Assembly (NCBI RefSeq): GCF_010725485.1
Contig: NZ_AP022598.1
Location: 1,116,001-1,180,000, forward strand
Direction of reading: 5' to 3'
Length of the DNA: 64,000 nt
Origin: Mycolicibacterium parafortuitum
GTDB lineage: Bacteria; Actinomycetota; Actinomycetes; Mycobacteriales; Mycobacteriaceae
Shown: piece after piece, positions 49,666 through 56,661 of the stretch
Numbering within the stretch: the stretch's first letter is position 1
How the letters are laid out: each line of letters begins with the position of its first letter
Notes under the pieces: generated by a model
What the model saw: only the letters and a program-made list of their open reading frames with translations
Databases searched by the model: none
Told to the model about the DNA's origin: nothing
Program-made: the position numbers and the translations under genes

Positions 49666-52600
49666 GTGTTCGCCTGGTGGGGTCGAACGGTGTACCAGTA
49701 CCGATACATAGTGATCGGTGTCATGGTCGCACTGTGCCTGGGCGGCGGCGTCTACGGCATGAGCCTGGGACAGCACGTCACCCAGAGCGGTTTCTACGAC
49801 GAGGGCAGCCAGTCCGTCCACGCGTCGCTGGTGTCCGACGAGGCCTACGGCCGCGACCGGACCAGCCATGTCGTCGCGATCCTGACGCCGCCGGACGGCG
49901 AGAAGGTCGACAACCCGGAGTGGATGAAGAAGGTCACCGGGGAGCTCGACGATCTGGTCGCCGACCACGAGGACCAGGTCGTCAGCTGGGTCGGCTGGCT
50001 GCGCGCCCCCGACGCCGACTCGGCGACCGTGCAGCAGATGAAGACCGAGGACCTGTCCAAGACGTTCATCAGCATCCCGCTCAAGGGCGATGACGACGAC
50101 ACGATCCTGAAGAACTACCAGGCCATCGAACCGCAGCTGTCCGAGGTCAACGACGGCCGCATCCAGCTGGCCGGTCTCAACCCGCTCGCCAGTGAGCTGA
50201 CGGGCACCATCGGCGAGGACCAGAAGCGCGCCGAGGTGGCCGCCATCCCGCTGGTCTGCGTGGTGCTGTTCTTCGTCTTCGGCGGCGTGATCGCCGCGGC
50301 GCTGCCCGGCATCATCGGCGGCCTGACCATCGCCGGCGCCCTCGGCATCATGCGGCTGTTCGCCGAGTTCATGCCGGTGCACTTCTTCGCCCAGCCGGTG
50401 GTCACGCTGATGGGCCTGGGCATCGCGATCGACTACGGCCTGTTCATGGTGAGCCGGTTCCGCGAGGAGCTGGCCGAGGGCTACGACACCGAGGCGGCCG
50501 TGCGCCGCGCGGTGATGACCTCGGGCCGCACCGTGATGTTCTCGGCGGTGATCCTGGTGGCGTCCTCGGTGCCGCTGCTGCTGTTCCCGCAGGGCTTCCT
50601 GAAGTCCATCACCTACGCGATCATCGCGTCGGTCATGCTCGCGGCGATCCTGTCGATCACCGTGCTGCCTGCCGCCCTGGCCATCCTCGGGCCCCGGGTC
50701 GACGCGCTCGGCGTGCGCTGGCTGCTGAAGTTCATCCAGAACCAGGTCGCCTCCGATCCCGCCAACACCCGCACCAACCCGCTGGCGATCGCGTCGATCC
50801 CGGCCGGTGTGCTGGTCCCGCCGGCCGGTATCGCGCTGGGACACCTGGCCCGCAAACGCATCAAGACCTCCGGTGAGCAGGGCCTGCCGCTGACGGTGAT
50901 CGGCCTGACCCTGGGCTACGTCTGCACCCTCGGCGGGCTGGCCGCGGTGATCATCGCGAACAAGGACGCGCTCGGCACCGGCCTGTACTGGGTGCTGCTC
51001 GGCGTGGTCATCTTCGTCGCGGTGATCGCCGGTGGCCTCGCGCTGGCACGCTACGTCCCGCTGGCCCGCGGCCCGATCGAGTGGTGGGTCGAGTGGCTGG
51101 CCGAGAAGACGCAGAAGACCAAGACGCGCGCCGAGGTCGAGCAGGGCTTCTGGGGCCGGCTGGTCAACGTCGTGATGAAGCGCCCGATCGCGTTCGCCGC
51201 GCCGATCCTGATCGGCATGATCCTGCTGGTCATCCCGCTGGGCCAGCTGTCCCTCGGCGGTATCAGCGAGAAGTACCTGCCGCCGGACAACGGGGTGCGC
51301 CAGGCGCAGGAGGACTTCGACCGCAGCTTCCCCGGCTTCCGCACCGAACCGCTGACCCTGGTGATCGAGCGCACCGACGGCGAACCCGTCACCGATCAGC
51401 AGCTCGCCGAGGTCCGCGCCAAGGCGATGACCGTCAACGGCTTCATCGACCCGGACAACGACCCGTCGAAGATGTGGCAGGAGCGCGCGGTCCAGGAGGG
51501 CGGTTCGAAGGATCCGTCGATCCGGGTGATCCAGAACGGCCTGATCAACCGCAATGACGCGTCCCAGAAGATCGACGAGCTGCGCTCCATCCAGCCGCCA
51601 CGCGGTCTGGAGATCTCGGTGGGCGGCACGCCCGCGCTGGAGCAGGACAGTATCCACAGCCTGTTCGACAAGCTGCCGCTGATGGCGGTGGTGCTGATCG
51701 TCACGACGACGATCCTGATGTTCCTCGCGTTCGGCTCGGTGGTGCTGCCGATCAAGGCCGCGCTGATGAGCGCGCTGACGCTCGGCTCGACGATGGGCAT
51801 CCTGACCTGGATGTTCGTCGACGGGCATGGCTCAGGACTGATGAACTACACACCGCAGCCGCTGATGGCGCCGATGATCGGCCTGATCATCGCGGTGATC
51901 TGGGGCCTGTCCACCGACTACGAGGTGTTCCTGGTGTCCCGCATGGTCGAGGCCCGCGAACGCGGCCTGTCGACAGCCGAGGCGATCCGGATCGGCACCG
52001 CGACCACGGGCCGCCTGATCACCGGTGCCGCACTGGTGCTCGCCGTGGTGGCCGGCGCGTTCGTGTTCTCCGACCTGGTGATGATGAAGTACCTGGCCTT
52101 CGGCCTGCTGATCGCACTGCTGCTGGACGCGACGATCATCCGGATGTTCCTGGTGCCCGCGATCATGAAGCTGCTCGGCGACGACTGCTGGTGGGCGCCG
52201 CGCTGGATGAAGCGCCTGCAGGAGCGCATGGGCCTCGGCGAGACCGAGCTGCCCGACGAGCGCAAGCGCCCGGTGGTCCGTGAAGAGCGCGCCGAGCCGG
52301 CCGAGGCGCTGGTCGGTGCCGGTGGACCGCCGGTGATGACCGCCGCGCGGGGCCTGCCGCACGACCCGACCCATCCCGCACCCGGACGTCCGGCCCCGGT
52401 TCGTCCGCCGGCCACCACGACGCGGATGAACACGCCGGGTTACCCGGTGGACCCGGCGGTTGCGGGGACCACGCGGATCCCGGCCCCGCCGCGACCCCCG
52501 GTCGCGCCTCCCCCGCCGCCTCCGCCCGCCGACGAACCGCAGACCACGCGGCTGTCGGTCGCGAAGAACGCGGTACGCAACGCCGTCAGCGGCGCCGCCG

Positions 52601-53019
52601 CGGCTGCGCGGGGAGCCATGCCGTCCTCGACGCCGCCCGCCTCGACGTCGCAGCCCTCGCCGACGGCGCCGGGTCGCGAGGACCGCGAGATCGAGTCCTG
52701 GCTCGGTGATCTGCGTGGCGGCGACAAGCCGGATGCGGCTGCACCACAGCCACAGCCACAGCCGCTGCGCCCGTCGGCCGAGCCGACCCGGGCGATCGGC
52801 AACGCCGACGACACGACTCAGTCCGAGGACGACTCCGACGACGCGGCGACCAGGGCTATCCCGGCGCAGCGCCCACCGGACGCCGAGACCGCGACCGAGA
52901 AGCTCAACACCCGGCCCGATACCGACGCACCGCCCCGCAGTGGTGACGAGACCACCCGCCGCGGCAGCGGTCCCGGAGTCAGCGCGCAGGATCTGCTGCG
53001 CCGCGAAGGCCGGCTGTAG
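49666..53019 (+). CDS. mmpL3: MmpL3 trehalose monomycolate transporter with inserted membrane domain
   Basis: The essential RND flippase/exporter of trehalose monomycolate, here 1117 residues against about 944 in M. tuberculosis and 1013 in M. smegmatis. The proton-relay Asp-Tyr pairs are present: D256-Y257 in GIAIDYGLF and D751-Y752 in GLSTDYEVF. In M. smegmatis the second pair is at 645, so about 106 extra residues lie between. They are at about 356-470, between VDALGVRWLLKF and WLAEKTQKTKTR, and read like a DUF4190 domain (NPLAIASIPAG, ALGHLARKRIKTSGEQG, IGLTLGYV) plus another helix. A ~250-residue Pro-rich tail ends in the conserved SAQDLLRREGRL. GTG 49666 has AAGGAG upstream. Confidence 0.97.
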   Translation: MFAWWGRTVYQYRYIVIGVMVALCLGGGVYGMSLGQHVTQSGFYDEGSQSVHASLVSDEAYGRDRTSHVVAILTPPDGEKVDNPEWMKKVTGELDDLVADHEDQVVSWVGWLRAPDADSATVQQMKTEDLSKTFISIPLKGDDDDTILKNYQAIEPQLSEVNDGRIQLAGLNPLASELTGTIGEDQKRAEVAAIPLVCVVLFFVFGGVIAAALPGIIGGLTIAGALGIMRLFAEFMPVHFFAQPVVTLMGLGIAIDYGLFMVSRFREELAEGYDTEAAVRRAVMTSGRTVMFSAVILVASSVPLLLFPQGFLKSITYAIIASVMLAAILSITVLPAALAILGPRVDALGVRWLLKFIQNQVASDPANTRTNPLAIASIPAGVLVPPAGIALGHLARKRIKTSGEQGLPLTVIGLTLGYVCTLGGLAAVIIANKDALGTGLYWVLLGVVIFVAVIAGGLALARYVPLARGPIEWWVEWLAEKTQKTKTRAEVEQGFWGRLVNVVMKRPIAFAAPILIGMILLVIPLGQLSLGGISEKYLPPDNGVRQAQEDFDRSFPGFRTEPLTLVIERTDGEPVTDQQLAEVRAKAMTVNGFIDPDNDPSKMWQERAVQEGGSKDPSIRVIQNGLINRNDASQKIDELRSIQPPRGLEISVGGTPALEQDSIHSLFDKLPLMAVVLIVTTTILMFLAFGSVVLPIKAALMSALTLGSTMGILTWMFVDGHGSGLMNYTPQPLMAPMIGLIIAVIWGLSTDYEVFLVSRMVEARERGLSTAEAIRIGTATTGRLITGAALVLAVVAGAFVFSDLVMMKYLAFGLLIALLLDATIIRMFLVPAIMKLLGDDCWWAPRWMKRLQERMGLGETELPDERKRPVVREERAEPAEALVGAGGPPVMTAARGLPHDPTHPAPGRPAPVRPPATTTRMNTPGYPVDPAVAGTTRIPAPPRPPVAPPPPPPPADEPQTTRLSVAKNAVRNAVSGAAAAARGAMPSSTPPASTSQPSPTAPGREDREIESWLGDLRGGDKPDAAAPQPQPQPLRPSAEPTRAIGNADDTTQSEDDSDDAATRAIPAQRPPDAETATEKLNTRPDTDAPPRSGDETTRRGSGPGVSAQDLLRREGRL

Positions 53020-55401: not shown

Positions 55402-55410
55402 TTGCGCCAC

Positions 55411-56661
55411 ATGAAGGTACCTGCCCTTCTCGCCGTCGCCGCAGTATCGGTGCTCGCTGCCGGCTGTTCGTCGGCGCCGGAGACCACCACCGCCGCCACC
55501 AGCATGGCGGCACCGGCGAACGGCCCGGTCCCTCCACCCCCGTCCGCGGTGCCGCCGCCGGGACCGTCGACGGCCACCCCGGTGGTGGGGAGGGTGCTGG
55601 CCGCACCGATCCCGGTGCGGGCCAGCGACGGCAAGACCCACCTGGCCTACGAGTTGCAGCTGACCAACACCCTTTCCCAGGACGTCACGCTGACCTCGGT
55701 CGACGTCCGCGCCGGGGACCGCACACTGCTTCGGCTGCCCGGTGACCGCCTCGCCTACTGGACCCGTGTCCTCGGAAACCCCGACCCGGCAACGGTCATC
55801 GGTCCCGCACAGACCGCGACCGTGGTTCTGGATGTCGCGCTGCCACCGGACGAGGCGGTGCCCGAACAGTTGATCCATGCCGTGGGCATCACCGTGCCCG
55901 AGCCGATGCTGCCGCTGTTCCCTGCGGCGATGACCGCCGACATCGCCCCCGTCGCCGTGCAGACCCGCAAGCCGGTGACCATCTCCCCGCCCCTGGCCGG
56001 GCCGAACTGGCTGGACGCCAACAGCTGCTGCGATATGACGGCGCACCGGTCGGCACTGAACCCGATCAACGGTCAGATCTGGGCCGCAGAGCGTTTCGGG
56101 ATCGACTACCTGCAGATCGGCCCGGATGGCCGGTTGTTCACCGGGGCCGAGGACAACGTCGAGAGCTACCCGTTCTACGGCAGCGAGATCCTGGCCGTCG
56201 GCGACGGTCCGGTGGTGGACGTCCAGGACGGGCTGCCCGAGCAGATCCCCGGCGTGACACCGACGGGGCTGGCCCTGAACGAGTACGGCGGCAACTACGT
56301 CGTCCAGGATCTCGGCGACGGCAACTACGCGTTCTACGCGCACATGCAGACCGGATCGGTGCGGGTCAAGCCGGGTGAACAGCTCACCGCCCGGCAGGTG
56401 ATCGGCTCGCTGGGTAACAGTGGCAACAGCGATGCGCCGCACCTGCATTTCCACGTGATGGACTCTCCGGACCCGTTGGGCTCCAACGGGCTGCCGTTCG
56501 TCTTCACCGAGTACTCACTGGACTCGCGGGTGACCTCCGACGTCGCCGTCGAGGGCTTGCTGGCCGGTGACGCGGCGGAGCTTGAGCCGGGCTTCGCGCC
56601 GCGTGACGAAAAGGGCACCAGCCCACTGGTTTACGATGTGATGACCTATGCCGAACGATGA
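55411..56661 (+). CDS. M23-peptidase-like lipoprotein, probably inactive
   Basis: A 416-residue lipoprotein: the signal peptide ends in the lipobox LAAGC (Cys about 18-19) and a Pro/Thr-rich linker follows. An Ig-like region (about 60-190) is followed by an M23/LytM domain (about 215-370) with YAHMQTG, GNSGNSDAPHLHFHV (HxH at 346-348). The first zinc-binding HxxxD motif seems lost: Arg228 stands where the His is expected before Asp232 in RFGIDYL. So it may bind rather than cut peptidoglycan. ATG 55411 is chosen over TTG 55402 because the signal peptide fits. It overlaps the DUF3054 gene by 14 bases. Confidence 0.83.
   Translation: MKVPALLAVAAVSVLAAGCSSAPETTTAATSMAAPANGPVPPPPSAVPPPGPSTATPVVGRVLAAPIPVRASDGKTHLAYELQLTNTLSQDVTLTSVDVRAGDRTLLRLPGDRLAYWTRVLGNPDPATVIGPAQTATVVLDVALPPDEAVPEQLIHAVGITVPEPMLPLFPAAMTADIAPVAVQTRKPVTISPPLAGPNWLDANSCCDMTAHRSALNPINGQIWAAERFGIDYLQIGPDGRLFTGAEDNVESYPFYGSEILAVGDGPVVDVQDGLPEQIPGVTPTGLALNEYGGNYVVQDLGDGNYAFYAHMQTGSVRVKPGEQLTARQVIGSLGNSGNSDAPHLHFHVMDSPDPLGSNGLPFVFTEYSLDSRVTSDVAVEGLLAGDAAELEPGFAPRDEKGTSPLVYDVMTYAER

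What the first reader, a model, noticed from the sequence alone, without database searches (positions are those of the whole stretch)
50731..51075. DUF4190-like membrane module inserted in the middle of MmpL3
The distance between the two proton-relay Asp-Tyr pairs is 495 residues here (D256 to D751) against 389 in M. smegmatis MmpL3 (256 to 645). The surplus of about 106 residues lies at the cytoplasmic joint between the two halves, between VDALGVRWLL and WLAEKTQKTKTR, and reads like a DUF4190 domain (NPLAIASIPAG ... GHLARKRIKTSGEQG ... IGLTLGYV) followed by another hydrophobic stretch. Flanks and C terminus are normal MmpL3. An even number of extra helices is needed to keep topology, so one hydrophobic stretch may be re-entrant. 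This is an unexpected add-on to an essential drug target.
Basis: partly seen in the sequence, partly recalled or inferred. Interest (0 to 1): 0.75.

Follow-up and report, generated by a model that had tools for sequence, protein, structure and literature searches.

The report
Membrane module spliced into MmpL3 transporter
In this mycobacterium, and in a scattered minority of its relatives, the essential lipid exporter MmpL3 carries an extra membrane-embedded domain of unknown function (DUF4190) at the joint between its two halves, a variant not found in the papers we searched.

Summary
The mmpL3 gene (49666-53019, 1117 aa) carries a 114-residue insert (aa 356-469, nt 50731-51072) between TM6 and TM7. 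It stands in place of an 8-residue connector seen in insert-free relatives, a net gain of 106 residues. The insert is a DUF4190 domain followed by one extra strongly hydrophobic helix. It is not an artefact: 69 of 396 genomes of the genus have it. All 45 named loci fetched are Mycobacterium, Mycolicibacterium or Mycobacteriaceae. The full module appeared in no other of 85 genera sampled in the order.

On a tree of the MmpL3 core the insert is patchy (6 changes of state; one clade rejected). In some species the module resembles that of a different lineage from the rest of the gene, so it seems to have moved between alleles by recombination. It evolves about three times faster than the core, but under purifying selection.

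Charges and prolines fit a re-entrant hairpin plus two spanning helices, which keeps the C-terminal half in its normal orientation.

Best reading: a captured membrane anchor with an added return helix, acting as a built-in accessory or scaffold. What it binds is unknown. This is a new variant of a known transporter.

The parts
49666..53019 (+). mmpL3 coding sequence with insert (1117 aa, GTG start)
   Evidence: NF052608 1717.4 bits against a cut-off of 1400; PDB 7k8b alignment
49666..50730 (+). N-terminal half of MmpL3 (aa 1-355, TM1-TM6), ordinary
   Evidence: aligns without gaps to 7k8b_A 1-356
50431..50436 (+). first proton-relay pair D256-Y257
   Evidence: codon position
50731..51072 (+). 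insert, aa 356-469 (114 aa), in place of the 8-residue connector (such as VPFFRNWK) of insert-free relatives
50785..50940 (+). DUF4190 (PF13828) match, aa 374-425
50776..50844 (+). H1, aa 371-393, Pro-rich hydrophobic stretch, proposed re-entrant hairpin
   Evidence: mean KD 1.31, mean 3.25 Pro in 69 sequences; re-entrance inferred
50845..50886 (+). L1, aa 394-407, basic loop, proposed cytoplasmic
   Evidence: at least 3 K/R in 69 of 69
50887..50955 (+). H2, aa 408-430, proposed spanning helix (in to out)
   Evidence: mean KD 1.49
50956..50979 (+). L2, aa 431-438, short loop, proposed extracytoplasmic
   Evidence: 0-1 K/R; fewer than L1 in 69 of 69
50980..51048 (+). H3, aa 439-461, strongly hydrophobic return helix outside the DUF4190 model
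   Evidence: mean KD 2.55, no charge in 69 of 69; beyond the DUF4190 match
51049..51087 (+). basic and Trp-rich exit segment (aa 462-474), proposed cytoplasmic, crosses the right junction
51088..53019 (+). C-terminal half of MmpL3 (aa 475-1117, TM7-TM12 and tail), ordinary
   Evidence: aligns to 7k8b_A 369-1013
51916..51921 (+). second proton-relay pair D751-Y752
   Evidence: codon position

Best explanation
This MmpL3 is a normal trehalose-monomycolate exporter whose cytoplasmic TM6-TM7 connector was replaced by a captured DUF4190 membrane anchor plus one return helix. SHOWN: the insert, its family, its place, its spread, its patchy distribution, the mosaic pattern that points to exchange between alleles, and selective constraint. 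INFERRED with good support: the chain leaves TM6 in the cytoplasm, dips into the membrane as a Pro-rich re-entrant hairpin (H1), comes back to a basic cytoplasmic loop (L1), crosses outward (H2) and returns (H3). The added count is even and TM7-TM12 keep their orientation. INFERRED weakly: the helices pack on the lipid-facing side next to TM6/TM7 and act as a built-in accessory subunit or docking face, as small separate membrane proteins do for other RND pumps (AcrZ for AcrB, MmpS for MmpL4/5; recalled). It would tune or localise MmpL3 without changing its proton relay or porter domains.
For: Insert and boundaries. DUF4190 identity. Census 69 of 396. Rest of gene normal. Mosaic pattern. Constraint: 19 pairs with core dS below 0.27 have insert dN/dS 0.03-0.32. 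Topology: L1 has at least 3 K/R and more than L2 in 69 of 69; H3 has no charge in 69 of 69. Several stand-alone DUF4190 proteins have Pro-rich N-termini and C-terminal cyclophilin, beta-propeller or Cys-containing parts. M. tuberculosis PpiB (Rv2582) is listed as a secreted glycoprotein found in secretome and membrane fractions (passages of PMC12757957), which fits N-in/C-out. Away from residues 344 and 474, beside the insert, the 11 further core residues tested followed its presence in only 0.2-1.6 of 4-5 independent pairs, as expected for a self-contained plug-in.
Against: The DUF4190 score of this copy is borderline (32 to 36.7 bits against 35). The insert evolves about 3 times faster than the core (summed dN/dS 0.32 against 0.12 over 34 pairs), which also fits a loosely constrained passenger. 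Insert-bearing species have not lost other DUF4190 proteins: 61 of 69 have at least one further match, against 198 of 327 other genomes with a match. So a simple fusion of an existing partner is not supported. On the PpiB analogy, the same paper models Rv2582 with its first 46 residues removed as a leader, by analogy with a C. fimi protein; if that held, DUF4190 would not be a stable anchor there. Several stand-alone DUF4190 proteins simply end after H2 and say nothing about the outer side. No binding partner is known.
Confidence: 0.55

Rival explanations
1. Tolerated passenger: the TM6-TM7 joint is a permissive site, the module folds on its own and does little for export; constraint reflects only the need to stay membrane-compatible.
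For: Faster evolution than the core; repeated gain, loss or replacement; few of the core residues tested track its presence.
Against: dN/dS well under 1 in all 19 close pairs; 15 columns invariant across 20 diverse inserts, including G-H, A-R and Gly positions not needed for mere hydrophobicity; kept in 69 genomes, one per species.
Confidence: 0.3
2. Captured partner (fusion): the stand-alone ancestor bound MmpL3 and was fused to it; a free DUF4190 protein does the same job in insert-free species.
For: Domain fusion often marks interacting partners (general knowledge); stand-alone homologues about a third to a half identical to the insert over the matched part are listed in the same genus (sequences).
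Against: Further matches are not missing from insert-bearing genomes (61 of 69 against 198 of 327); those read are cyclophilin anchors or other membrane proteins with no MmpL3 link known to me.
Confidence: 0.1
3. Assembly, frameshift or annotation artefact, or an intein.
For: None found; a priori possible for one genome.
Against: One-contig genome, open frame, same module in 69 of 396 genomes, G+C of the insert (0.709) like the gene (0.697), no intein family among the three Pfam hits.
Confidence: 0.01
4. All three hydrophobic stretches span the membrane and the C-terminal half is inverted, or a further segment compensates.
For: Three hydrophobic stretches are present.
Against: The basic L1 would lie outside in 69 of 69; the C-half, with relay pair and porter domain, is conserved as in ordinary MmpL3.
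Confidence: 0.04

Closest known systems
MmpL3, trehalose monomycolate exporter (NF052608; PDB 7k8b, 7nvh)
   Same: Both halves, both Asp-Tyr pairs, tail; 1717 bits against a cut-off of 1400; single copy over the cut-off in the genome.
   Different: 114 residues with three hydrophobic stretches in place of the short TM6-TM7 connector; the two PDB alignments shown break off there, and the best stretches of the other listed MmpL3 chains begin at 474-475.
DUF4190 (PF13828) stand-alone membrane proteins of actinobacteria
   Same: Short H1, often with Pro, then G-H-x-A/S, a basic loop of the type I-K/R...G-E-x-G, and a Gly-rich H2.
   Different: Many begin with Pro/Gly-rich tails and end in a further domain or stop after H2; the MmpL3 module has instead a third helix leading back towards TM7.
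PpiB-type cyclophilins (Rv2582 family; label recalled)
   Same: Carry a DUF4190 segment that matches the insert profile at E 8e-15 to 2e-17, in the range of the other stand-alone proteins read; PF13828 + PF00160 in 4 of 4 scanned.
   Different: Anchor an isomerase domain; unrelated to RND transporters.
AcrZ-AcrB and MmpS-MmpL4/5 (recalled)
   Same: Small membrane partners beside an RND transporter: a functional analogy only.
   Different: Separate proteins, no sequence relation tested; a review passage says MmpL3 has no associated MmpS (PMC10171966).

Membership tests
MmpL3 (NF052608) | Score over the curated equivalog cut-off (1400 bits) | tested here: met
   1717.4 bits; 1714.6 with both stretches in the genome search
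MmpL3 (NF052608) | Two Asp-Tyr proton-relay pairs in TM4 and TM10 | tested here: met
   DY at 256 and 751; role of the pairs recalled
MmpL3 (NF052608) | Colinear match to a solved MmpL3 structure | tested here: met
   7k8b_A aligned 1-356 and 475-1117, interrupted by the insert
MmpL3 (NF052608) | Exports trehalose monomycolate | not testable with these tools
   needs biochemistry
DUF4190 (PF13828) | Score over the Pfam gathering cut-off (35 bits) | tested here: met
   Insert alone 35.2, genome search 36.7; but 32 for the whole protein, under the cut-off; 20 of 20 relatives hit at E<=1, best 9.6e-15
DUF4190 (PF13828) | Shared conserved positions with stand-alone members | tested here: met
   G-H-x-A/S, loop Gly and G-x-x-x-G/S-Y patterns compared by eye
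DUF4190 (PF13828) | Same membrane topology as stand-alone members (re-entrant H1, N-in/C-out; my proposal) | tested here: inconclusive
   Charge and proline pattern agrees; no structure
RND accessory subunits (AcrZ, MmpS) | Sequence homology to AcrZ or MmpS | not tested
   The insert's Pfam hits at E<=1 were DUF4190 and a weak Tetraspanin only; no direct comparison made

The most novel reading that the evidence does not exclude
The DUF4190 module is an exchangeable cassette of MmpL3: it is swapped among mycobacterial mmpL3 alleles by recombination, independently of the equally mosaic first periplasmic part, and sets how the exporter is regulated, located or recognised. It would mean that an essential transporter is diversifying by domain swaps, perhaps under pressure from natural inhibitors, phages or changing partners.
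Probability: 0.15. Interest if true: 0.75.

Novelty: new variant of a known kind. Interest (0 to 1): 0.5.

Why it matters
MmpL3 is one of the most studied mycobacterial drug targets. The solved MmpL3 chains found here are, as far as one search shows, of the short-connector form. About one in six of the genomes examined in the genus (69 of 396) encode a longer form with an extra membrane module at the joint of the two halves; named carriers include M. aurum, M. vaccae, M. parafortuitum, M. iranicum and M. tusciae. These natural variants allow direct tests of whether the joint can carry an accessory subunit, and of what DUF4190 does. They also warn that such species may not be faithful stand-ins for MmpL3 work.

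Tried and rejected
Artefact or intein: rejected by the census. One gain without loss or exchange: rejected, p-AU 2.06e-09 on the quick core tree. The gene is mosaic, so part of the conflict may be recombination, and the 40 insert-free rows are a sample of 327 drawn from the capped list of best-scoring matches. Coevolving core residues (13 columns tested on the tree): R344 (60 of 68 with the insert; N344 in 34 of 40 without) went the same way in on average 4.3 of 5 independent pairs, but five pairs cannot reach significance and 344 lies next to the insert, so linkage may explain it. W474, at the right junction, went the same way in 2.6 of 5. The other 11 (M291, V302, L297, A337, C198, M261, L478, A489, K132, G215: 0.2-1.6 of 5; I594: 0.9 of 4) mostly did not differ. 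Residues 470-473, in or at the junction, also differ by state but were not put to that test. A solved relative of the insert: nothing better than E 2.3. Loss of other DUF4190 proteins in insert-bearing species: not seen. Link of the reported viable mmpL3 deletion in M. neoaurum to the insert: that gene is given as 2871 bp (956 codons and a stop), too short to carry it by my reckoning (passages of PMC5440992). Literature: no paper in the held library has MmpL3 with DUF4190, nor DUF4190 at all. Three more searches listed nothing on the insert (listings seen, 20, 2 and 12 rows). The passages shown of two MmpL3 reviews (PMC10171966; PMC7503588) mention none. Subscription papers were not searched.

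Rows dropped: the summed figures use 34 disjoint pairs chosen greedily out of 2345; later pairs are distant, so I lean on the 19 with core dS below 0.27. L081 (503 aa) was left out of the trees as too short. L013 is the window itself and was left out from then on. The first extraction picked wrong reading frames for some rows and was redone.

Full report
WHAT IS THERE. The window holds an intact mmpL3 (49666-53019, +, 1117 aa) in a one-contig genome of 6.04 Mb. It is a true MmpL3: 1717.4 bits against the curated cut-off of 1400, both Asp-Tyr pairs present at 256 and 751, and near-continuous similarity to crystallised MmpL3. The best PDB alignment runs 1-356 to 1-356, stops, and resumes 475-1117 to 369-1013. 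The 106 surplus residues therefore sit at one point, the joint between the two halves. It is the only MmpL3 over the family cut-off in the genome.

BOUNDARIES. Of the 40 insert-free relatives aligned, all 40 have 29 residues where the window has 135. In several the stretch reads LGVRTLLR-VPFFRNWK-PMNWWLNWLADRT or differs from that only at its end; the window reads LGVRWLLK-[114 aa]-PIEWWVEWLAEKT.

WHAT IT IS. The first half of the insert is DUF4190 (PF13828): 35.2 bits for the insert alone and 36.7 in the genome search, against a cut-off of 35, but 32 bits when the whole protein is scanned. The borderline score of this copy is resolved by its relatives: 20 of 20 diverse inserts hit DUF4190 at E<=1, best E 9.6e-15, and 119 of the 120 listed protein homologues carry both Pfam domains (124 found). 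The rest of the insert is a strongly hydrophobic stretch (H3); no other family reached its cut-off on the insert. No solved structure matches the insert (best E 2.3).

DISTRIBUTION. Of 396 genomes of the genus, 69 (own genome included) have the full module in an MmpL3-type frame. I fetched the other 68 (loci) and saw the insert of every one. In one search all 396 genomes gave an MmpL-family match at E <= 1e-100 and 378 passed the MmpL3 cut-off. The 12 genomes outside the 69 whose best match there was not E = 0 were examined again. In seven the gene is missing or present only as pieces that do not reach across the joint, so they cannot be scored (G003, G041, G166, G267, G274, G307, G359); in five the match runs through the joint without an insert. 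For most insert-free genomes I rely on the tables and did not read the sequence; 40 were read. In a sample of 397 genomes of the order (85 genera) only 10 matches ran through the whole module, all 10 in the own genus; the others listed ended at or before position 80 of 118. A scan of named genomes gave 45 loci, all titled Mycobacterium, Mycolicibacterium or Mycobacteriaceae, among them M. vaccae, M. parafortuitum, M. bacteremicum, M. iranicum, M. aurum, M. tusciae, M. hodleri and M. novocastrense (the pattern scan is not exhaustive). One protein comes from a metagenome bin labelled Aeromicrobium, on a 2.8-kb contig; I take it as mis-binned.

HISTORY. On a tree of the MmpL3 core without the insert (108 rows: 68 with, 40 without) the label needs 6 changes, at least 5 on well-supported branches, and holding the insert-bearing rows together is rejected (p-AU 2.06e-09). 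Identity between N and C halves correlates at 0.81 over 2278 pairs, but insert with N half only at 0.43. Example: L080 and L071 have inserts 78-91% identical in DNA to that of L040 (51-76% to L065 and L072), yet their residues 60-180 are 83-91% identical to L065 and L072 and only 61-63% to L040. The simplest reading is that the module has been exchanged between mmpL3 alleles; the first periplasmic part also looks mosaic, and which part moved in each case is not settled. Nor is the direction of each change (gain, loss, replacement).

CONSTRAINT. In 19 close pairs (core dS below 0.27) the insert's dN/dS is 0.03-0.32, always below 1, and in 18 of 19 above that of the core. Over all 34 pairs the summed values are 0.32 for the insert, 0.12 for the core and 0.20 for a periplasmic part. 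So it is constrained, but less than the rest. G+C is like the gene's (0.709 against 0.697).

TOPOLOGY. In 69 of 69 inserts the loop between H1 and H2 has at least 3 Lys/Arg and more than the loop between H2 and H3; H3 has no charge at all; H1 holds on average 3.25 prolines. The positive-inside rule puts the first loop and the exit in the cytoplasm and the second loop outside. H1 would then be a re-entrant hairpin and H2/H3 a spanning pair: an even number, as the normal C half requires. Some stand-alone relatives give independent support. Several have a Pro/Gly-rich N-terminus, then DUF4190, then a C-terminal part that reads as extracytoplasmic: cyclophilin (PF00160 in 4 of 4 scanned), a beta-propeller protein, a Thr-rich, Cys-containing part. 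Others end after H2 and are silent on this. M. tuberculosis PpiB/Rv2582, which I recall as this cyclophilin, is listed as a secreted glycoprotein found in secretome and membrane fractions (passages of PMC12757957); the same paper models it with its first 46 residues removed as a leader by analogy, which would speak against a stable anchor there. N-in/C-out with a basic inner loop again means that H1 does not span. On this view H3 is what was needed to bring a one-way anchor back to the cytoplasm.

FUNCTION. Most likely, in my judgement, the module is a built-in accessory element beside TM6/TM7, for docking or tuning. Separate small membrane proteins serve other RND pumps (AcrZ, MmpS; recalled); a review passage states that MmpL3 lacks an associated MmpS and names interactors such as TtfA (PMC10171966). 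Passages of an interactome paper describe MmpL3 as a likely scaffold that binds CrgA, AftD and Rv0207c (PMC6656915). A nearly neutral passenger is the main rival. A plain fusion of a former partner is disfavoured, because insert-bearing genomes keep further DUF4190 matches (61 of 69, against 198 of the 327 other genomes).

NOVELTY. The held library has no paper with MmpL3 and DUF4190 or with DUF4190 at all, and further searches gave nothing on the insert. Public protein records already show the combined domain architecture. It is a new variant of a known transporter, not a new kind of system.

Noticed in passing
L071, L080 (residues 60-180 of MmpL3) against L040, L037: The first periplasmic part of MmpL3 falls into very different alleles (61-65% DNA identity across groups against 83-91% to L065 and L072) in a gene that is mostly 73-98% identical elsewhere outside the insert, which suggests recombination there too.
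   Followed up: partly
L174, L177, L179-L183, L185, L186: A mycobacterial protein seen in these 9 of 15 loci joins a Pro-rich N-terminus, DUF4190 and a cyclophilin domain (PpiB type); DUF4190 looks like its membrane anchor (Pfam scan of four of them).
   Followed up: partly
L002:1468-2181 (-): A stand-alone DUF4190 protein of the window's genome lies between a CitE-like gene and a short membrane protein followed by a SugC-like ABC ATPase; gene labels are recalled from the sequence.
   Followed up: no
L191/L203 (G045) and L192 (G097): In G045 the mmpL3 frame is interrupted near profile position 507-538; in G097 the match also ends at 508 in a 551-aa frame. A sequencing error or a truly split gene; described only.
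   Followed up: no
G307: No MmpL3 over the family cut-off in a 99% complete draft; best match is a paralogue of 392 bits, probably a gap in an assembly of about 590 contigs.
   Followed up: no
window 55402-56661 (+): ORF with a lipoprotein-like start (LAAGC) and an M23-peptidase-like C-terminal part (labels from reading the sequence, no search) close downstream of the mmpL3 cluster.
   Followed up: no
MmpL3 residue 344, codon just upstream of the insert: Arg in 60 of 68 insert-bearing and Asn in 34 of 40 insert-free proteins; may be linked to or compensate for the insert.
   Followed up: partly
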